DNA from: Candidatus Poseidoniaceae archaeon
GTDB taxonomy: Archaea > Thermoplasmatota > Poseidoniia > Poseidoniales > Poseidoniaceae
DNA length: 64,000 nucleotides
Direction: 5' to 3'
NCBI GenBank assembly: GCA_949373095.1
Contig: CASIBY010000018.1
Location: forward strand, 1-64,000
The translations under genes were made by a program, and so were the position numbers. Numbering within the stretch: position 1 is the first letter of the stretch; every line of letters starts with the position of its first letter. Positions 4,901 to 40,484 of this stretch are shown here, one piece after another. The notes beneath the pieces were generated by a model. The model did not search any database, had not been told where the DNA came from, and saw nothing but the letters and a program-made list of their open reading frames with translations.

Positions 4901-7900
4901 GATTCATTGGTGTCGGAAAGTCCGTCGTTATCATCGTCAGTGTCTTCCACAAGGCCTGGTGCATCAGGGTTGGTTGGATCATAATCGCCGGGCAATTCGT
5001 TGGGCAATCCGTCGCCGTCGCTGTCTTCCAAGATTTCAATCGTGAAGTTCCACGACAGAGAATCACCGTTGGAGTTGTTCGACCACATGGTGTAGGTGGT
5101 GTTGGTGATGGTTTCGGTAGCTGTACCGGTGATTTCACCGGTTGCGGGGTCAAGAGACAGGGTTGCTGGCAAGTCTGGTGAAATCTCGTAGGTTCCACCG
5201 CTTACTGCCAAGTATGGAGCAAGCGTTGAGATGACGGTGTTGTTGACGGCAACCAAGGTTGGCGGGAAACTTTCACCGTTCGGATCGCTGTCTGGACCTG
5301 CAACACAGATTGGAGGTACTGCATTTGGGCCGTCGCAAATTCCATCACCGTCGGTGTCTGGATTCAATGGGTCAGTACCCGTATTCGTGGCGTCAATGTA
5401 GGTTCCAGTGTCAGTCTCGACAGAATCGGCAAGCCGTCAGCGTCGTCATCATCGTCAGCAACAAGACCTGGCGTTGGTTGGTCGGCTGCATTGTAATCGC
5501 TTGGCAGATCGTTTGGTAGTCCATCGCCGTCGTAATCTGCGAGACTCTGCAGGTTGAACGTGAAGGTCTCGGTAGCACTGCCGTTATGGGTTGCTGTTAC
5601 CGTAATGGTAGCATTCGCAAAGGTTCCGTTGACCGTTCCAGTAATTTCACCAGTTGAGGCATCAATCGTGAGGTTTCCTGGCAAGTTTGCCGAAGCCGTC
5701 CACGTAGTGGTACCGTTGTTGAACGGTGGATGGAAGCCAATGGCATCGATGGCTTGGTTCTCAACGACCGTGTGTGCATTGTCCGTATCGACACTGAAGT
5801 ACAACTGGTGCGTTGTTGAATAATTGCTCTGATTAGCATAAACTGTGTAGGTCTGATTGTTGGCATAAACCGAAGGTGTTCCACTGATGACGCCGTTCGA
5901 GATGCTCATTCCTGCAGGTAATGCAGGGTCGGTTTCCCATGAAACGGGTGGTGGGGTGTTGAGGATGATGTTGGCAGGGTCTAAAGCCCACAATTCCTTT
6001 CCAGATCCCACGTTAGGTTGGTTGGGTATGTCGGTGGCTCGGAAATAGAGGATATTGTCAACGGTTATGAGTTCACTAGGATCGCTACTACTTCCACTGC
6101 TGATCTCCTGGACCATCACCGTACCATTGGCTGTTCCATCGCTCTTGAACAATTCAGTACCTACTCCCGATCCGCCGTGGGCTGAGAAATAAACGGTGTT
6201 GCCAACGGCTGTGAGGTATTGGGGAGAACTGCTGTCACTTCCACTGCGGATGTCCTTGACCATCATTGTGCCGTTGGCTGTTCCATCGCTCTTCCACAAT
6301 TCCCATCCGTTGGTTCCGTCGTTGGCTCGGAAATAGAGGGTGTTGCCGACGGCTGTGAGGTAGGAATTAGAATCAATAAGGGGGAGAGATCCGCTGGAGC
6401 CGACCATCATTGTGCCATTGGCTGTTCCATCGCTCTTCCACAACATGTTGAGGAGGGTTCCGTCGGTGGCTTTGAAATAGAGGGTGTTGCCAATGGCTTT
6501 GAAATAGTTAGGATAACTGTTGCCACTTCCGCTGTTGATGTCCATCATCACCGTGCCTGAGGCTGTTCCATCGCTCTTCCACAATTCGGTTCCATTGGTT
6601 CCGTCGCTGGCTGCGAAATAGAGGGTGTTGCCAAAGGCTGTGAGATAACTGGGAGAACTGCTGCTACTTCCGCTGTTGATGTCCTTGATCATCACCGTGC
6701 CTGCGGCTGTTCCATCGCTCTTCCACAATTCGGTTCCGTTGGTTCCGTCGGTGGCTGAGAAATAGAGGGTGTTGCCAACGGCTGTGAGGTAGGAGGGAAC
6801 AATTTGAACACTTCCGCTGTTGATGTCCTTGACCATCACCGTGCCTGAGGCTGTTCCGTCGCTCTTCCACAATTCCCATCCGTTGGTTCCGTCGTTGGCT
6901 GCGAAATAGAGGGTGTTGCCAACGGCTGTGAGGTGGGTGGGATCACTGCTGCCACTTCCGCTGTTGATGTCCTTAACCATTACCGTGCCTGCGGCTGTTC
7001 CATCGCTCTTCCACAATTCGTATCCGTTGGTTCCATCGGTGGCTTCGAAATAAAGGGTGTTGCCAACAGCTGTGAGGTGGTTAGGCCAACCGCTGTCACT
7101 TCCGCTGTTGATATCCTTGACCAGCACCGTGCCTGAGGCAGTTCCATCGCTCTTCCACAATTCGTATCCGTTGGTTCCGTCTATGGCTCGGAAATAGAGA
7201 ATGTTGCCAACGGCTGTGAGGAAATAGGGACTACCTTCGGCAGCTCCGCTGTAGATGTCCTTGACCATCCAAGCAGTACCGTTGCCGTTGTACAGGGTTC
7301 CGTTACCCGCTTGTGAAGTGTAGTTGAGCGTGATCGGGCCCATAGCTTCACCAAGATTGAGATGCGCACCTTCCACCGTTGAGGTGATGGTTGCGAACGG
7401 TGAGGTGGAGAGCCATACGGTCGTCTGGAATGTTGTTGAATTGATGACCGCCGTAACCGTGTAGGTTGCATTGCTTGTCGTGACTGTTGGTGTACCGCTG
7501 ATGGTGCACGTGCTGCTGTCGATGTTCAAGCCGTTTGGTAGGCTTGGAGAAGCAACACAACTTGTTGCATTGGTGACGTTGGTCATGCCGCTGCCTGAGC
7601 CGCTGCCTGAGCCGCCGCTGCCTGAGCCGCTGCTCAGTGAGGTGATTTCACTTGGTTGAAGAGCCCACAGTTCGTAGCCGCTGCTTCCATCACTCGCATC
7701 GAAGTAGAGCGTATCACCGACGAAGTATCTCCATGTGTTGTCCGGGTTTACTGTTGCCAGTCCCGCTGTCGATATCAGCCACCTGCCAAGTTGAGGCGTT
7801 TGAGGTATCATGAGCCCACAGTTCCCAGCCGCTGCTTCCATCATCGCACTCGAAGTAGAGCGTATCACCGACGAGTATCTCCATGCCGTAATATCCGGGG

Positions 7901-10900
7901 TTACTGGTGCCAGATCCGCTGTAGATATCAGCCACCTGCCAAGTTGAGGCGTTTGAGGTATCATGTGCCCACAGTTCGTGGCCGCTGCTTCCATCATTCG
8001 CACTGAAGTAGAGCGTATCACCGACGAGTATCGCGTCCATGTAATGTCCGGGGTTACTGTGGCCACTTCCGCTGCGGATATCAGCCACCCGCCAAGTTGA
8101 GGCGTTTGAGGTATCATGAGCCCACAGTTCTGTGCCGCTGCTTCCATCATACGCACTGAAGTAGAGCGTATCACCGACGAGTATCTCCATACCTACTGCT
8201 CCGGGGTTACTGCTGCTAGATCCGCTCCAGATATCAGCCACCTGCCAAGTTGAGGCGTTTGAGGTATCATGAGCCCACAGTTCCCGGCCGCTGCTTCCAT
8301 CACTCGCATCGAAGTAGAGCGTATCACCGACGAGTAGTTCCATGTAAAGTCCGGGGTTACTGCTGCCAGTCCCGCTGCGGATCTCAGCCACCCGCCAAGT
8401 TGAGGCGTTTGAGGTATCATGAGCCCACAGTTCGTGGCCGCTGCTTCCATCACTCGCACTGAAGTAGAGCGTATCACCGACTAAGATCTCCATGTATTGT
8501 CCGGGGTTACTGCTGGCAGCCCCGCTGTTGATATCAGCCACCCGCCAAGTTGAAGCGTTTGAGGTATCATGAGCCCACAGTTCGTGGCTGCTGAAAAAAT
8601 CATACGCACTGAAGTAGAGCGTATCACCGACTAAGATCTCCATGTATTGTCCGGGGTTACTGCTGCCACTGCTGTGGATATCAGCCACCCGCCAAGTTGA
8701 GGCGTTTGAGGTATCATGAGCCCACAGTTCTGTGCCGCTGCTTCCAACAGTCGCATCGAAATAGAGCGTATCACCGACTAAGATCTCCATGTATTGTCCG
8801 GGGTTACTGTTGCCACTGCTGTGGATATCAGCCACCCGCCAAGTTGAGGCGTTTGAGGTATCATGAGCCCACAGTTCTGTGCCGCTGCTTGCATCATACG
8901 CATCGAAGTAGAGCGTATCACCGACTAAGATCTCCATGTGATATCCGGGGTTACTACTGGTACTACCGCTGAAGATGTTAGCCACCTGCCATGTTGTTCC
9001 GTTGCCGTTGGTTGTGGTGCCTGAGCCGCTGCCTGAGCCGCTGCCTGAGCCGCTCGCCGCACTGGCGTTGTATTGGAAGGTGATGTTGGTCATGGCCTCA
9101 TCGATGATGAGATCTGCACCTTCGACGCTTGATGTGAGTTGTTGGTATGCGCTTGAGAGCCAAATGGTGGTCTGGAAGGTCACGCTGTTGATGACCGCCG
9201 TAACCGTGTAGGTTGCATTGCTTGTCGTGACTGTTGGTGTACCGCTGATGGTGCACGTGCTGCTGTCGATGTTCAAGCCGTTTGGTAGGCTTGGAGAAGC
9301 AACACAACTTGTTGCATTGGTGAGATTGGTCATGCCGCCGCTTGAGCCGCCGCTGCCTGAGCCGCTGCTCAGTGAGGTGATTTCACCTGGTTGATGAGCC
9401 CACAGTTCCTTGTCGCCGCTTCTGTACTGCGCATCGAAGTAGAGCGTATCACCGACGAGTATCGACATGTATAGTCCGGGGTTACTGTTGTAAGTGCCAC
9501 TATAGATTTCAGCCACCTGCCAAGTTGAGGCGTTTGAGGTATCATGAGCCCACAGTTCCATGCCGCTGCTTCCATCAATCGCATCGAAGTAGAGCGTATC
9601 ACCGACGAGTATCAACATGAATTGTCCGGGGTTACTGTTGCCAGATCCGCTGTAGATATCAGCCACCCGCCAAGTTGAGGCGTTTGAGGTATCATGAGCC
9701 CACAGTTCGTAGCCGCTGCTTCCATCATCCGCACTGAAGTAGAGCGTATCACCGACTAAGGTCTCCATGTATTGTGTGGGGTTACTGTGGCCACTTCCGC
9801 TGCGGATATCAGCCACTCGCCAAGTTGAGGCGTTTGAGGTATCATGAGCCCACAGTTCGTGGCCGCTGCTTGCATCATACGCATCGAAGTAGAGCGTATC
9901 ACCGACCAATATCGCCATTCTATATCCGGGGTAACTGTCGCCAGATCCGCTGTCGATATCAGCCACCCGCCAAGTTGAGGCGTTTGAGGTATCATGAGCC
10001 CACAGTTCTTTGCCGCTGCTTCCATCATCCGCATCGAAGTAGAGCGTATCACCGACGAGTATCGACATGTGTTGTCCGGGGTAACTGCTGTCAGCACCGC
10101 TGCGGATATCAGCCACCTGCCATGTTGAGGAGTTTGAGGTATCATGAGCCCACAGTTCATAGCCGCTGCTTCCATCAGTCGCATCGAAGTAGAGCGTATC
10201 ACCGACGAGTATCGTCATGTGTTGTCCGGGGCTACTACCGGTACTCCCGCTAATATCAGCCACCCGCCAAGTTGAGGCGTTTGAGGTATCATGAGCCCAC
10301 AGTTCTGTGCCGCTGCTTACATCATACGCACTGAAGTAGAGCGTATCACCGACGAGTATCGACATGTCAGATCCGGGGACACTGGCCTCAACACCGCTGT
10401 TGATATCAGCCACCCGCCAAGTTGAGGCGTTTGAGGTGTCATGAGCCCACAGTTCTGTGCCCCTGCTTCCTTCATACGCACTGAAGTAGAGCGTATCACC
10501 GACGAGTATCGACATGTATTGTCCGGGCCAACTGGTGCCACCCCCGCTCTTGATATCAGCCACCTGCCAAGTTGAGGCGTTTGAGGTATCATGAGCCCAC
10601 AGTTCTGTGCCACTGCTTCCATCATTCGCACTGAAGTAGAGCGTATCACCGACGAGTATCTCCATGAATGATCCGGAGAGACTGCCGATAGATCCGCTGT
10701 TGATATCAGCCACCTGCCATGTTGTTCCGTTGCCGTTGGTTGTGGTGCCTGAGCCGCTGCCTGAGCCGCTACCAGAGCCGCTTGCTGCACTGGCGTTGTA
10801 TTGGAATGTGATGTTGGTCATGGCCTCATCGATGAAGAGATCTGCACCTTCGACGCTTGCGGTGAAGTTGCTTGCGCCCGAGCCTCCCGTTTCGAGAACG

Positions 10901-11037
10901 TCGGTGCTCTGGTCAAGTGTTTCTTCGTCGTTTTTCCATGCGTTCATGGATTCAAGATACCCCACTTGGGTCATCATCATCATCAAAAGCGAGAGGACGA
11001 CGGCTCGGTTGAAATTCGCATGGCGTGCACCGGACAT
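1920..11037 (-). CDS. Giant secreted/anchored surface protein: N-terminal signal-like segment, three blocks of ELWxxDGT/ELWAHDTSN repeats, He_PIG-like Ig domains, TSP3 calcium-binding repeats, C-terminal TM and cytoplasmic domain (frame interrupted about nine times)
   Basis: Contiguous same-strand ORFs 7714-11037, 5364-8174, 4495-5367, 4242-5198, 3779-4426, 3529-4077, 3231-3782, 2837-3253, 2632-2829 and 1920-2771. Domain sequence continues across each junction in a shifted frame. TSP3 motif DTDGDGxCDGP; TM WMWCFPCLLFLLLILLVPLVL. Confidence 0.7.
5980..7270 (-). repeat. Block of nine ~48-aa ELWKSDGTxxGTxxVKDI repeats
   Basis: Nine ELW/MLW/ELF-type unit ends, with LTAVGNTLYFxAxDGTNG spacing, counted in ORF 5364-8174. 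Confidence 0.85.
7441..7576 (-). repeat. 136-bp perfect direct repeat, copy A (He_PIG-like domain); copy B at 9188-9323
   Basis: Both copies read ttgatgaccgccgtaaccgtgtagg...gcaacacaacttgttgcattggtga, compared base by base. Confidence 0.9.
7640..8990 (-). repeat. Block of nine ~50-aa (~150 bp) ELWAHDTSNASTWxVADI repeats
   Basis: Eight gtatcatg(a/t)gcccacag sites plus a terminal ELWALQPSE unit. Confidence 0.85.
9188..9323 (-). repeat. 136-bp perfect direct repeat, copy B
   Basis: Identical to 7441-7576. Confidence 0.9.
9390..10710 (-). repeat. Block of nine ~50-aa (~150 bp) ELWAHDTSNASTWxVADI repeats
   Basis: Eight g(t)atcatgagcccacag sites plus a terminal KELWAHQPGE unit. Confidence 0.85.
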
Positions 11038-34530: not shown

Positions 34531-37500
34531 TCAACCGTAGAGTTTCCATTCGGTTCCGGTCCACCAGTAGGTGTTTCCGTCATCCATGGATCTCCAAGTA
34601 TATCCGCCTTCATCGGTCCATTGTCGTACCACTGTAGGTTCAGCCACGACGGGTTGTGCCGCCACTGGATGTGGGATGACTTCGACCGTCTGAATCGGTT
34701 GAACCGATTGTACAGGCTGAGCCACGTAGGCTTGGGTCGCAACTTGCTGGGCAGGTTGGGCTTGTTGGGCATACTGAGCACTGTAATCAACGGTTGCAGC
34801 CGGCTGCTGAACCTGTTGGGTGGCGTAGGATGTGGCTGCGATAGGTTGGGAATTGTTGATGATACCAAGTTCGGAGAGGTCCTTTTGCGTCTCTTCGTCT
34901 GAGCCACGAGACCTCAAGAAGAGAACTGCTCCAAGTGCGCCAACGAGGCCGACAGCGATAAGCGAGATAATGGTAGTCAAACTGCTGTCATCGTCTTCTG
35001 AAGCAACGGTGTCACCAGAGGTATCTTCCACAACATCTTCGGGGGGCATGAGAACAGCGTCAATCACATGGATGATTCCGTTTGAGGTCATCACATCAGC
35101 AAGAGTGATGTTAGCACCGTTGATTCCTGTCGTTAGCGAAAGAGTCGTATTGTCTCCGTTCACCATTTGCAGCATCATGCCTTCAGTAATGTTCGATGCT
35201 TGAACCGAGCCTGCATGGACGTGATAGAGGAGGATGTCAGTGAGAGCTGCTTTCCCTTCAGGAGTGTCAAGTGTGGTGAGGTCAATGCCTGCATCTGCAA
35301 AGGCTTGGTCAGTTGGCGCAAAGAGCGTAAACGGTCCGTCACCTTGGAGGGTTTCAAGCAACTCTGCTTGAATGACTGCTGCGACCAGAGAGTTGTGGAT
35401 ACCTGTGCACTGTGCAGTTCGTGGTAGGTCGTTTGGTGTGTCTGATGGAGACAACACCTTGTCGATAACATGGATGACTCCGTTGCTTGTGTTCACGTCT
35501 GCAAGCGTTACGTTTGCTCCGTTCACCATAACACCAGTTCCTACGGTGAAGGCAAGAGGTTGTCCGTTGACAGCGTTGGCCGTCATGCATTCAGTGACTG
35601 CCGAAGCAGGAACTGCACTGGGAACGACGTGGTAAAGCAGGATATTCGCAAGAGCTGTCTTGCCTTCAGGAGTATCAAGCGATGCGAGGTCAATACCTGC
35701 ATCAGCAAAGGCTTGGTCGGTTGGCGCAAAGAGCGTGAACGGTCCGTCACCCTGAAGTGTCTCAAGCAACTCTGCTTGGATGACTGCGGCCACGAGAGAG
35801 TTGTGGATACCTGTGCACTGTGCGGTACGTGGTAGGTCGTTTGGCGTGGAAGTTGGCGTGAGAACCTTGTCGATAACATGGATAATTCCGTTGCTTGTGT
35901 TCACGTCTGCAAGCGTTACGTTTGCACCGTTCACCATAACGCCTGTTCCTACTGTGAAGGCGAGAGGTTGTCCGTTGACAGCGTTGGCCGTCATGCACTC
36001 AGTGACTGCCGAAGCAGGAACTGCGCTGGGGACGACGTGGTAAAGCAGGATGTCAGTAAGGGCTGTCTTTCCTTCAGGAGTATCAAGCGATGCGAGGTCA
36101 ATGCCTGCATCTGCAAATGCTTGGTCGGTCGGTGCAAAGAGCGTAAACGGTCCGTCGCCCTGGAGTGTTCCAAGCAACTCTGCTTGGATGACTGCAGCCA
36201 CGAGAGAGTTGTGGATACCTGTGCATTGTGCAGTACGTGGAATATCGTTTGGTGTTGATGTTGGCGTGAGAACCTTGTCGATGACGTGGATCACTCCGTT
36301 ACTTGTAGCAACGTCAGCCGTGACGACGGTCGCTCCGTTAACCATGACGCTGTCGCCGACGGTAAAGGAAAGTGGGTTTCCGTTAACGGTCGGAGCGGAC
36401 ATACAGTCAGTGACGTTTGCTGCAGGGACTTCTCCACTCAGCACGTGGTAAAGGAGAATATCCGAGAGGACTGCTTTTCCTTCCTCTGTATCAAGGTCAG
36501 CAAGGACGATACCTGCGTCAATGAAGGCTTGATCTGTTGGGGCAAAGACCGTGAACGGTCCATCGCTTTGGAGGGTAGGCAGAAGGCCAGCTTGGATGAC
36601 GCTCGCAACAAGCGAGTCGTGAATGCCTGTGCATTGTGCAGTGCGGGGGATATCTCGTGGAGTCTCGGTTGGAGACAGAACTTTGTCGATGACGTGAATC
36701 ACGCCGTTACTGGTGTTGACATCTGCAAGGGTGACGGTAGCGTCGTTCACCATGACGCTATCCCCGACGGTGAAGGAAATCGGGTTACCATTGACCGTTG
36801 GAGCCGAGAGACACTCTGTTACAGCAGAGGAGGGGACTTCTCCAGAGACGACGTGGTAGAGCAGGATGTTCGCAAGGGCTGTCTTTCCTTCAGGTGTATC
36901 AAGCGATGCAAGGTCAATGCCTGCATCAGCAAATGCTTGGTCTGTTGGCGCAAAGAGGGTAAACGGACCTGTTCCTTGGAGCGTTTCAAGCAAATCTGCC
37001 TGAACGACTGCTGCAACCAAGGAATCATGGATTCCAGTGCATTGAGCGGTTCGGGCGATGTCATTAGGAGCGTCAGACGGCGTGAGGACCTTGTCGATGA
37101 CATGGATGACGCCGTTGCTGGTGTTCACGTCGGCAAGCGTTACATTTGCTCCGTTAACCATGACTCCCCCGTTGACTGTGAACGACAGAGGTTGGCCATT
37201 CACAGCGGTTGCTGACATGCACTCTGTCACTGCTGAGGACGGAACTTCTCCAGAGACGACGTGGTAGAGAAGAATATCGGACAACGCAGCTTTTCCAGCA
37301 GGTGTGTCAAGAGATGCGAGGTCGATACCAGCGTCAGCGAAGGCTTGGTCTGTTGGAGCAAACACGGTGAATGGTCCTGGTCCTTGGAGCGTTTCAAGCA
37401 GTTCTGCCTGAATCACACCAGCAACGAGCGAGTCGTGAATACCGGTGCACTGCGCTGTACGGGGGATATTGTTTGGAGTATCGGAAGGTGTGAGAACCTT

Positions 37501-38364
37501 ATCGATGACGTGAATCAAACCGTTGCTTGTCACGACGTCGGTCATGGTCACATTGGCGTCGTTAACCATCACTCCGTTTCCAACGGTGAAGGAAAGCGGT
37601 TGGCCGTTTGCTGCGTCAGCAGACATGCAATCCGTGACTGCAGATGCTGGAACTTGAGAGGGCACAACGTGATAGAGAAGGATGTCGGAGAGGGTTTCCT
37701 TTCCAGTTGGGTTGTCCAGCAAAGCCAGATCTATGCCTGCATCAGCAAAGGCCTGGTCCGTTGGCGCGAACAATGTGAAGGGCCCGGTTCCTTGAAGGGT
37801 TGCCAGCAGGTCAGCCTGGATGACTGCTGCAACGAGCGAATCGTGAATACCTGTTGTTTGGGCAGTTGCTGGAATGTCAACTGGTGGGATGAGCACGGTG
37901 TCGATGATGTGAATGACACCGTTAGAGGCCTGAACGTCTGGGGTTTCCACAGTTGCAGTACCGACGGTGACGGTAGTTGCACTGACGCCGAACTTGACGT
38001 TGTCTCCGTTCACCATTGGGATGAGCATGCCGTCTGTCAAATCGCTGGAATTAACAGTGCCCGAGTAGACGTGGTGAAGAAGAATGTCGGAGAGGGTTGC
38101 GTTTTCTTCTGGCGTGTCAAAGTCGGCCAGGTCAATGCCTGCATCTGCGAAGGCTTGGTCGGTTGGGGCGAAGACAGTGAATGGCCCTGTCCCTTGTAGC
38201 GTAGCCACCAAACCAGCATGGGTCAGAGCCGCAACAAGAGAATCATGAACGCCGGTTGCTGCCGCATTTGCCGGAATATCTTGCGACGAATCTGCACTAA
38301 CGTTCAATGGTAGGCTAGAAGCAACCAACAGTGTGAGCATCATGTAAACGGCAATTTTCTTCAT
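34531..38364 (-). CDS. Surface protein with eight fasciclin (FAS1) domains, C-terminal TM and cytoplasmic Q/A/P-rich tail with WW-like end
   Basis: Signal peptide; eight TGxH(D/N)SLVA...GPFT(V/L)FAPTDQAF...SNGxIHxID units; TM TIISLIAVGLVGALGAVLFL; end WTDEGGYTWRSMDDGNTYWWTGTEWKLYG. Confidence 0.93.
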   Translation of the reverse strand: MKKIAVYMMLTLLVASSLPLNVSADSSQDIPANAAATGVHDSLVAALTHAGLVATLQGTGPFTVFAPTDQAFADAGIDLADFDTPEENATLSDILLHHVYSGTVNSSDLTDGMLIPMVNGDNVKFGVSATTVTVGTATVETPDVQASNGVIHIIDTVLIPPVDIPATAQTTGIHDSLVAAVIQADLLATLQGTGPFTLFAPTDQAFADAGIDLALLDNPTGKETLSDILLYHVVPSQVPASAVTDCMSADAANGQPLSFTVGNGVMVNDANVTMTDVVTSNGLIHVIDKVLTPSDTPNNIPRTAQCTGIHDSLVAGVIQAELLETLQGPGPFTVFAPTDQAFADAGIDLASLDTPAGKAALSDILLYHVVSGEVPSSAVTECMSATAVNGQPLSFTVNGGVMVNGANVTLADVNTSNGVIHVIDKVLTPSDAPNDIARTAQCTGIHDSLVAAVVQADLLETLQGTGPFTLFAPTDQAFADAGIDLASLDTPEGKTALANILLYHVVSGEVPSSAVTECLSAPTVNGNPISFTVGDSVMVNDATVTLADVNTSNGVIHVIDKVLSPTETPRDIPRTAQCTGIHDSLVASVIQAGLLPTLQSDGPFTVFAPTDQAFIDAGIVLADLDTEEGKAVLSDILLYHVLSGEVPAANVTDCMSAPTVNGNPLSFTVGDSVMVNGATVVTADVATSNGVIHVIDKVLTPTSTPNDIPRTAQCTGIHNSLVAAVIQAELLGTLQGDGPFTLFAPTDQAFADAGIDLASLDTPEGKTALTDILLYHVVPSAVPASAVTECMTANAVNGQPLAFTVGTGVMVNGANVTLADVNTSNGIIHVIDKVLTPTSTPNDLPRTAQCTGIHNSLVAAVIQAELLETLQGDGPFTLFAPTDQAFADAGIDLASLDTPEGKTALANILLYHVVPSAVPASAVTECMTANAVNGQPLAFTVGTGVMVNGANVTLADVNTSNGVIHVIDKVLSPSDTPNDLPRTAQCTGIHNSLVAAVIQAELLETLQGDGPFTLFAPTDQAFADAGIDLTTLDTPEGKAALTDILLYHVHAGSVQASNITEGMMLQMVNGDNTTLSLTTGINGANITLADVMTSNGIIHVIDAVLMPPEDVVEDTSGDTVASEDDDSSLTTIISLIAVGLVGALGAVLFLRSRGSDEETQKDLSELGIINNSQPIAATSYATQQVQQPAATVDYSAQYAQQAQPAQQVATQAYVAQPVQSVQPIQTVEVIPHPVAAQPVVAEPTVVRQWTDEGGYTWRSMDDGNTYWWTGTEWKLYG
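35175..36290 (-). repeat. 408-bp tandem repeats (136-aa FAS1 units), highly similar copies
   Basis: Shadow ORFs recur at exactly 408-bp offsets (35372/35780, 35354/35762, 35175/35583). Confidence 0.85.
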
Positions 38365-38760: not shown

Positions 38761-39093
38761 ATGGAACAAGAATGCGACCCTGTCTTTGCCCGTGTTGACA
38801 AGTTACTGGCTCTGCTGAACAAATCAAAATCTCTTCACATTCTCCTTATCCTCAGTCTGAAAAATCGTCCGCTGAGATTTTCTGAAATTAAGAACCAAGT
38901 GAGTTCGTCTTCAACTACGGTTACACGCCGGCTAACAGAACTTGAATCAAATGGTTTAGTACAACGGAAAGCCATTCCCACGATGCCTCAAACGGTTACA
39001 TACAACCTCACTGAAGACGCTGAATTACTCGCCCCGTCGATTCAATCCATGTACGATTGGATCGTTGAACGCGACATGAACTTCGTAATCTAA
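38761..39093 (+). CDS. HxlR-like winged-helix transcriptional regulator
   Basis: LLNKSKSLHILLILSLKNRPLRFSEIKNQVSSSSTTVTRRLTELESNGLVQRK. Confidence 0.75.
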   Translation: MEQECDPVFARVDKLLALLNKSKSLHILLILSLKNRPLRFSEIKNQVSSSSTTVTRRLTELESNGLVQRKAIPTMPQTVTYNLTEDAELLAPSIQSMYDWIVERDMNFVI

Positions 39094-39290: not shown

Positions 39291-40484
39291 TTACTGTTTC
39301 GTAATTTCATCATGTAATGTTGAAACAGTCTGTGCGGTCTCAACTATTTTTTGGTCTCTGAAATTTTGTATCTGTTTGTCTGCTTTTTCTTGAATTTTAG
39401 CCTTTCTTTCACTCAATCTTTTCAGAATAAATCCGATAATTCCGAGGGCACCACCAATGATACCGACTACAGCAGAGTAATATTGTAAATTTGAAAACGA
39501 ATCTTCCTCAGAATCGGTTTGGAGGTTGATTGAACAACCATCAAGATCAACAGATGCATTAGTCTCAGTGTTTGAGCATTGGTCTTTGGAGTCGAGCACG
39601 CCATCGCCATCAGAATCCAAAGTTTCATCCAATGAACAACCATCTGACCCTACGTTTGTTGTCGGGCTGTCTGGACAATTGTCCGGATTTAGTCCAGAAC
39701 GGTTGTCTCCATAACCATCTCCATCACGGTCTGACCATTGCGTTGAATCATTAGGAAAAACGTCGGTTTCATCGCCATATCCGTCTCCATCGCTATCCTT
39801 TGTTTCACTTGCGTCATTGGGAAAATCATCAGAGTTGTCGCCTATTCCATCACCATCAGAATCAGACCATTCTGTTTCGTCATTTGGGAATTCATCGGAT
39901 TCATCATCATATCCATCCCCATCTGAATCCGTAGGCTCAGTAGTTGGAGAAATGACTTTCCATGTTGAATTCACATCTCTATTCTGTCTCGAATCATCTC
40001 CATATCCAGATAATTCAACTTCACTCTCTGTATTTGTCAACCAACCGAAGAAGAATTCTCCTTTCCACTTTCCTGGATCATTCTGCATGTCGCACTCGTC
40101 ATCGTTAGCAATATCGTTGTCTCTGCATTCAATAAGGAACCGGATGTTAGACGAATCATCTGGTATGTTTATTGTCAAATTCCACGCATTACTGAGCTCG
40201 AAAACATCCTCCCATTGAGGGCTATCATAACAATCAACCAATTCATCATCTGCGTATACACAGACTTCAAAATAAGGGTCTGGAGCACCATCACCTGAAT
40301 CCCATTCTCCACTTAAATTTCCATCCCAACTGACCAATGACAGAATAATATGCGCATCCTCTTCATCTCTGTGATCAGTTTCATCAGGATAACCATCGCC
40401 ATCTGTATCTTCAGCTGAAACGGTATGAGGTATCAACAGTATTGAAAACAGAATTGCAACTAAAATTTTAGTTCTCATAAACAC
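39291..40484 (-). CDS. TSP type-3 repeat surface protein with C-terminal TM
   Basis: Signal peptide; repeated DSDGDGYGDETDxFPND; TM YYSAVVGIIGGALGIIGFIL. Confidence 0.85.
   Translation of the reverse strand: MFMRTKILVAILFSILLIPHTVSAEDTDGDGYPDETDHRDEEDAHIILSLVSWDGNLSGEWDSGDGAPDPYFEVCVYADDELVDCYDSPQWEDVFELSNAWNLTINIPDDSSNIRFLIECRDNDIANDDECDMQNDPGKWKGEFFFGWLTNTESEVELSGYGDDSRQNRDVNSTWKVISPTTEPTDSDGDGYDDESDEFPNDETEWSDSDGDGIGDNSDDFPNDASETKDSDGDGYGDETDVFPNDSTQWSDRDGDGYGDNRSGLNPDNCPDSPTTNVGSDGCSLDETLDSDGDGVLDSKDQCSNTETNASVDLDGCSINLQTDSEEDSFSNLQYYSAVVGIIGGALGIIGFILKRLSERKAKIQEKADKQIQNFRDQKIVETAQTVSTLHDEITKQ

What the first reader, a model, noticed from the sequence alone, without database searches (positions are those of the whole stretch)
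34531..38364. Staggered cysteines suggest disulfide staples between neighbouring fasciclin domains
Of eight FAS1 domains, domain 1 has no Cys. Domain 2 has only the C-side Cys (VTDCMSA). Domains 3-7 have both N-side (RTAQCTGIH) and C-side (VT(E/D)C(M/L)) Cys. Domain 8 has only the N-side Cys. C-side Cys therefore occur in domains 2-7 and N-side Cys in 3-8: six and six, offset by one domain. That is the pattern expected if domain n is linked to n+1, and it is not expected for intra-domain disulfides. It would make a rigid covalently stapled rod.
Basis: partly seen in the sequence, partly recalled or inferred. Interest (0 to 1): 0.6.

Follow-up and report, generated by a model that had tools for sequence, protein, structure and literature searches.

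The report
Archaeal surface stalk with serial disulfides
A surface protein of an ocean archaeon is built from eight similar blocks, and its cysteines sit so that each block can be tied by a disulfide to the next one rather than to itself; the rule held at every junction examined in its relatives, although no bond has been measured.

Summary
The 1277-aa ORF (34531-38364, minus) has a signal peptide, eight FAS1 domains, one membrane helix and a cytoplasmic tail. It has exactly 12 Cys: C-side in domains 2-7, N-side in 3-8. Each C-side Cys lies exactly 60 residues before the N-side Cys of the next domain. The genome is a Ca. Poseidoniaceae (Marine Group II) MAG.

The n-to-n+1 pairing is strongly supported by relatives. 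In 324 FAS1-FAS1 junctions, 209 have both Cys of the pair, 115 have neither and none has one. Arrays of 5-9 domains obey the rule. Some relatives lose the pair together at an internal junction. In L150 no domain holds both cysteines, so same-domain pairing is impossible there. Stapled junctions also have a linker three residues longer than unstapled ones in the same proteins. Other cysteines are almost absent. Every sampled Poseidoniaceae genome encodes VKOR.

Not shown: SG-SG distances (no coordinates available), the bonds themselves, and rigidity. A three-domain model is confident (pTM 0.81); the eight-domain model is not (pTM 0.32). Human TGFBIp already has one FAS1-FAS1 disulfide, at other positions. 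The novelty is serial stapling: a new variant of a known kind.

The parts
34531..38364 (-). FAS1-repeat surface protein gene, 1277 aa
   Evidence: ORF; Pfam Fasciclin x8; orthologues with the same architecture
38290..38364 (-). predicted signal peptide (residues 1-25, MKKIAVYMMLTLLVASSLPLNVSAD)
   Evidence: read from the sequence (charged start, hydrophobic core); no signal-peptide program available
37882..38283 (-). FAS1 domain 1, no Cys; candidate unstapled head
37474..37881 (-). FAS1 domain 2, C-side Cys only (C246)
37066..37473 (-). FAS1 domain 3, both Cys
36658..37065 (-). FAS1 domain 4, both Cys
   Evidence: model of domains 4-6
36250..36657 (-). FAS1 domain 5, both Cys
   Evidence: model
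35842..36249 (-). FAS1 domain 6, both Cys
   Evidence: model
35434..35841 (-). FAS1 domain 7, both Cys
35026..35433 (-). FAS1 domain 8, N-side Cys only (C986)
37447..37629 (-). staple 1: C246 (domain 2) to C306 (domain 3)
   Evidence: rule
37039..37221 (-). staple 2: C382 (domain 3) to C442 (domain 4)
   Evidence: rule
36631..36813 (-). staple 3: C518 (domain 4) to C578 (domain 5)
   Evidence: rule
36223..36405 (-). staple 4: C654 (domain 5) to C714 (domain 6)
   Evidence: rule
35815..35997 (-). staple 5: C790 (domain 6) to C850 (domain 7)
   Evidence: rule
35407..35589 (-). staple 6: C926 (domain 7) to C986 (domain 8)
   Evidence: rule
34915..34980 (-). predicted transmembrane helix (residues 1129-1150)
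   Evidence: hydrophobic run followed by RSR, read from the sequence; same layout in orthologues
34534..34914 (-). predicted cytoplasmic Gln/Ala/Pro-rich tail ending in a conserved Trp-rich motif (34534-34620)

Best explanation
This is a type-I membrane surface protein of a Poseidoniales archaeon whose ectodomain is a row of eight FAS1 domains. At six of the seven junctions, a Cys in the loop just before a beta strand of domain n (domain position 85) forms a disulfide with a Cys at the end of the first helix of domain n+1 (domain position 9). Each bond closes a loop that holds the last part of domain n and the linker. Domains 2-8 thereby become one covalently tied stalk, and domain 1 stays free as a head on a shorter linker. 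SHOWN: the cysteines, their spacing, the all-or-none rule at junctions, the co-varying linker length and junction residues, and the near absence of other cysteines. INFERRED: that the bonds form, with VKOR and a thioredoxin-like partner as the likely makers; that they restrict bending; that a cut or pull at a linker is bypassed by the disulfide; and that the stalk projects a head for adhesion.
For: Observation: 12 Cys, six pairs, all 60 residues apart. Rule: 209 both, 115 neither, 0 discordant junctions; 23 of 23 complete arrays of 5-9 domains have equal N-side and C-side counts. Internal paired loss: L069, L035 and L075 lose C3/N4 together; L150 lacks two adjacent pairs and keeps two. A tree of the unaffected region separates L150 from L069/L035, so probably two or more events. 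Same-domain pairing would leave 93 of 304 domains of the family with one unpaired Cys. Junction type is coherent: linker 7 residues in 187 of 189 stapled and 4 in 34 of 39 unstapled junctions (re-measured); Arg at position 5 of the next domain in 97% of stapled and 0% of unstapled junctions; Asn108 in 100% and 16%. Cys otherwise nearly excluded: in 41,922 aa of family ectodomain only three ORFs have any Cys off these two columns, one of them an insert with 8 Cys; 7 Cys in 25,527 aa of paralogue FAS1 domains. Oxidation machinery: VKOR in the own genome beside a CGFC-bearing thioredoxin-like ORF; VKOR in 39 of 39 sampled Poseidoniaceae genomes. Model of domains 4-6: pLDDT 92.7, pTM 0.81.
Against: No SG-SG distance was measured; the predictor gives no coordinates. 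The eight-domain model is unreliable (pTM 0.32, pLDDT 71.7), so rigidity and rod shape are not supported at full length. The paired Cys codons are only 180 bp apart and arrays evolve by unit duplication (L150 d3 and d4 nearly identical), so part of the co-occurrence could be block inheritance. A DsbA-like partner (PF13462) was not found in this 82% complete MAG, and the thioredoxin-like neighbour is below Pfam's cut-off. VKOR also occurs in 28 of 40 sampled genomes of the sister family, where no stapled junction was found, so it is permissive and not specific.
Confidence: 0.84

Rival explanations
1. Intra-domain disulfides: in domains 3-7 the N-side and C-side Cys of the same domain pair, and the lone Cys of domains 2 and 8 are free or pair with each other or with a partner.
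For: Five of eight domains here contain both Cys, and 170 domains in the family do. Intra-domain distance was not measured.
Against: 93 of 304 family domains have just one of the two. L150 has four ectodomain Cys in four different domains, and the L035 fragment three in three, so no same-domain pair is possible there. Unpaired Cys would sit at exactly complementary places in 23 of 23 complete arrays.
Confidence: 0.05
2. Block inheritance: the C-terminal half of one domain plus the start of the next is duplicated as a unit, so the two Cys travel together without being bonded; the thiols are kept for another reason (metal, surface chemistry) or by recent copying.
For: The two codons lie 180 bp apart and arrays grow by duplication (L150 d3/d4). 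Other junction residues and linker length travel with them.
Against: It does not explain why neither Cys is ever lost alone among 209 stapled junctions whose median pairwise identity is 77%, nor why Cys is almost absent elsewhere in the ectodomain. A metal site made of two Cys alone would be unusual (general knowledge).
Confidence: 0.06
3. Intermolecular disulfides: C85 of domain n bonds to C9 of domain n+1 of a neighbouring molecule, so that parallel proteins form a cross-linked sheet or bundle.
For: It would also produce the n/n+1 rule. Confidence in the domain arrangement of the long array is low.
Against: Constant 60-residue spacing and a fixed linker length at stapled junctions are most simply explained by closure within one chain. 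Bonding in exact register at six places needs ordered packing for which nothing here is evidence.
Confidence: 0.05
4. Variant of the main reading, not exclusive with it: staples exist but serve protection more than stiffness. Each bond bridges the linker, so a proteolytic cut there does not sever the chain, and domains keep some hinge motion.
For: The bond closes a loop around the linker; the longer linker at stapled junctions would allow motion; the eight-domain model does not settle on one arrangement.
Against: The three-domain model has pTM 0.81, which favours a defined arrangement.
Confidence: 0.3

Closest known systems
Human TGFBIp (BIGH3) and periostin, four-FAS1 matricellular proteins
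   Same: Tandem FAS1 domains, the best sequence and fold matches in the PDB. TGFBIp has a disulfide between FAS1-1 and FAS1-2 (PMC8220419), so a bond between neighbouring FAS1 domains has precedent.
   Different: One FAS1-FAS1 bond and not a series. The bonded positions are C214 and C317 (own knowledge); in the alignment they fall at about domain positions 108 and 78, not 85 and 9. The three-domain model does not superpose on these structures as a whole (query TM 0.33-0.43, rmsd about 15-20 A). No CROPT domain here.
Cys-free FAS1-repeat paralogues in the same archaea (for example G000 C3, 717 aa; L040; L086-L125)
   Same: Same family, up to five FAS1 domains; one is in the same genome.
   Different: No Cys at either position in any of 180 domains; fewer domains.
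Periscope proteins (SasG, Rib, Sgo_0707 type; PMC8201768)
   Same: Cell-surface arrays of similar folded domains whose number varies (5-9 here between species), proposed to project a distal head.
   Different: Bacterial and wall-anchored; repeat number varies between strains, which was not tested here. No inter-domain disulfides are mentioned in the parts read.
Drosophila fasciclin I domain pair (1O70) and fission yeast Fsc1 (9NU9)
   Same: FAS1 tandems of cell-surface proteins, matched by fold.
   Different: Low whole-array TM (0.33-0.38); whether they have a counterpart of this Cys pair was not examined.

Membership tests
FAS1 (fasciclin) domain proteins | Pfam Fasciclin match over the curated cut-off | tested here: met
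   PF02469, 8 stretches, 760 bits against 22
FAS1 (fasciclin) domain proteins | FAS1 fold | tested here: met
   Model against TGFBIp FAS1-4: target TM 0.85-0.86, rmsd 2.0-2.3 A
TGFBIp/periostin family | four FAS1 domains | tested here: not met
   Eight domains
TGFBIp/periostin family | N-terminal Cys-rich CROPT/EMI domain | tested here: not met
   No such Pfam match; no Cys before residue 246
TGFBIp/periostin family | FAS1-FAS1 disulfide at the same positions | tested here: not met
   The human Cys align near domain positions 108 and 78; here they are 85 and 9 (alignment; human residue numbers from own knowledge)
TGFBIp/periostin family | same relative placement of neighbouring domains | tested here: inconclusive
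   Three-domain model does not superpose as a whole (query TM 0.33-0.43), but this rests on a model
Periscope proteins | highly similar tandem folded domains | tested here: met
   Repeats at 408-base spacing, 68-92% identical to the reference copies
Periscope proteins | repeat number varies between close relatives | tested here: inconclusive
   5-9 domains between species, but mostly from MAGs in which repeats may collapse
Periscope proteins | stiff rod that projects a distal binding domain | not testable with these tools
   Eight-domain model unreliable; no binding assay
Serial interdomain-disulfide stalk (proposed here) | Cys pair present or absent together at each junction | tested here: met
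   324 junctions, 0 discordant
Serial interdomain-disulfide stalk (proposed here) | SG-SG bonding geometry | not testable with these tools
   The predictor returns no coordinates

The most novel reading that the evidence does not exclude
A clade-specific archaeal surface stalk in which every FAS1 domain from the second onward is covalently joined to its neighbour by a disulfide that bypasses the linker. This makes a chain that stays continuous if linkers are cut and carries force through only about 76 of the 136 residues of each middle domain. A loose, Cys-free first domain serves as the head, and array length varies between species.
Probability: 0.45. Interest if true: 0.65.

Novelty: new variant of a known kind. 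Interest (0 to 1): 0.5.

Why it matters
FAS1 arrays are widespread adhesion proteins, and only isolated bonds between FAS1 domains are known to me (TGFBIp). A serial, all-or-none stapling code would be a simple way for an uncultured marine archaeon to build a long stalk without isopeptide or ester bonds, and it gives a clear bench test. The rule can also be read from sequence alone, so stapled and unstapled junctions could be predicted in any FAS1 array. No paper found by the searches reports FAS1 proteins in Poseidoniales.

Tried and rejected
Same-domain pairing was tested by counting and rejected for at least L150 and L035. A cap-domain explanation (first, second and last domains simply differ) was considered and rejected because the same paired loss occurs inside arrays. 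TGFBIp-type equivalence was tested by alignment and fold and rejected. The full-ectodomain model was a poor use of the second job: shallow repeat alignment, pTM 0.32, and I cut the last 28 residues of domain 8 (the query ended at residue 1085; the domain ends at about 1113). Coordinates were looked for and are not available. A first search used wrong-frame coordinates. A DsbA-like Thioredoxin_4 protein was not found. Literature searches for Poseidoniales or Marine Group II with fasciclin found nothing; searches for serial interdomain disulfides found only loosely related papers. The first tree put L150 beside L069 with weak support (0.37), probably because it included the altered junction; the tree without it separates them. 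Conserved synteny was sought and found only in three loci of very close relatives. Distant two-domain FAS1 proteins of other families (L221, L222) carry a position-85 Cys in the last domain with no partner; they are outside the orthologous family and say nothing for or against the junction rule.

Full report
WHAT IS THERE. The ORF at 34531-38364 on the minus strand codes for 1277 aa. Pfam finds eight Fasciclin (FAS1) domains and nucleotide repeats run at 408-base spacing. Read directly from the sequence, it has a signal peptide (residues 1-25), eight domains from residue 28 to about 1113, a hydrophobic helix at 1129-1150 and a Gln/Ala/Pro-rich tail ending in a conserved Trp-rich motif. The window lies in a 1.87-Mb, 82% complete genome whose closest relatives are MAGs of Ca. 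Poseidoniaceae, Marine Group II archaea.

THE OBSERVATION. The whole protein has exactly 12 Cys. Domain 1 has none, domain 2 has only the C-side Cys, domains 3-7 have both and domain 8 has only the N-side Cys. Each C-side Cys is exactly 60 residues before the N-side Cys of the next domain. In one protein an exact one-domain offset of six and six has a 1 in 28 chance, so relatives were needed.

THE RULE IN RELATIVES. FAS1 arrays were taken from the order and beyond, cut into domains and scored at domain positions 9 and 85. After removal of duplicates, 324 junctions between neighbouring domains could be scored. 209 have Cys at 85 of domain n and at 9 of domain n+1, 115 have neither, and none has only one. 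In the Cys-bearing set, the same two positions within one domain disagree in 93 of 304 cases. All 23 complete arrays, with 5 to 9 domains, have equal numbers of N-side and C-side Cys. These sequences are related, so the counts are not independent trials.

THE INFORMATIVE EXCEPTIONS. L069, L035 and L075 lack the Cys at the domain 3/4 junction on both sides. L150 has six domains and only four ectodomain Cys, at residues 268, 328, 670 and 730 of the open frame: two pairs, each 60 apart, in four different domains. Same-domain bonds are impossible there. A tree built from the region not touched by the change places L150 (with L014, support 0.87) apart from L069/L035 (with L018, L053 and L065, support 0.92), so probably two or more separate changes; a tree that included the altered junction was less clear.

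JUNCTION TYPES. Stapled junctions have a linker of 7 residues in 187 of 189 parsed cases; unstapled junctions of the same proteins have 4 in 34 of 39 (a second measure gives 21 against 18 residues). Stapled junctions also share Arg at position 5 of the next domain (97% against 0%) and Asn at 108 (100% against 16%). So the Cys pair belongs to a distinct interface. Cys-free paralogues often have 7-residue linkers too, so length alone does not define it. Stapled junctions differ by 23% from each other at the median, yet neither Cys is lost alone. Only three family ORFs have a Cys in the array off these two columns.

STRUCTURE. A model of domains 4-6 with 66 aligned triples has pLDDT 92.7 and pTM 0.81. 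It puts the N-side Cys at the end of the first helix and the C-side Cys in the loop just before a strand. Single domains match TGFBIp FAS1-4 (target TM 0.86), but the triple does not superpose on periostin or TGFBIp as a whole (query TM 0.33-0.43, rmsd about 15-20 A). The full ectodomain model is unreliable (pTM 0.32), partly through a shallow repeat alignment and a truncated last domain.

CAN BONDS FORM? The own genome has a VKOR with a CxxC motif, next to a thioredoxin-like ORF with CGFC (weak Pfam support). VKOR is in 39 of 39 sampled Poseidoniaceae genomes and 28 of 40 of the sister family. A DsbA-like Thioredoxin_4 protein was not found.

HOW IT MOST LIKELY WORKS. Inference: the disulfides form after export and tie domains 2-8 into one chain that bends little and survives linker cuts. 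Domain 1, on a shorter unstapled linker, is a head. The function is probably adhesion or contact, by analogy with other FAS1 proteins (PMC6032426) and with the importance of adhesion proposed for these archaea (PMC6461757).

COMPARISON. The domain family is known. A FAS1-FAS1 disulfide is known in TGFBIp (PMC8220419), at other positions. Variable-length stalks are known as Periscope proteins (PMC8201768). New here, as far as these searches reach, is a serial all-or-none staple across an archaeal FAS1 array. Most sequences are from MAGs, so domain counts in single genomes may be wrong, though the junction rule does not depend on counts.

Noticed in passing
L021 (same contig as L058 and L194), ORF residues about 130-260: This 8-domain relative carries an insert with eight extra Cys in regular spacing next to domain 1, a possible separate Cys-rich module.
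   Followed up: partly
38761-39093 (+): A 110-aa ORF that looks like an HxlR-type regulator (by eye) lies divergently upstream of the FAS1 gene; a 71%-identical copy is upstream of the gene in L062, with shorter matches in L056 and L080.
   Followed up: partly
34534-34620 (-): The predicted cytoplasmic tail ends in a conserved W-rich motif (WTD..G.TWR..DDG..YWW.G.EW) in the orthologues viewed; no Pfam match.
   Followed up: no
34531-38364 (-), inside the repeats: N-x-S/T sequons recur at the same place of many domains (ANVT, NTSNG), so the stalk may be glycosylated.
   Followed up: no
5364-11037 (-): Two large overlapping ORFs with many copies of an 'ELWAHDTSNASTWRVADI..LVGDTLYF' type repeat, a candidate giant surface protein, possibly one gene split by a frameshift.
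   Followed up: no
39291-40484 (-): Exported protein with thrombospondin type 3-like DSDGDGYGD repeats and a C-terminal membrane helix, upstream of the FAS1 gene (no Pfam hit).
   Followed up: no
L221, L222 (another family of the phylum): Two-domain FAS1 proteins with a Cys at position 85 of the last domain and no N-side partner; six Cys in all, bonding unknown.
   Followed up: no
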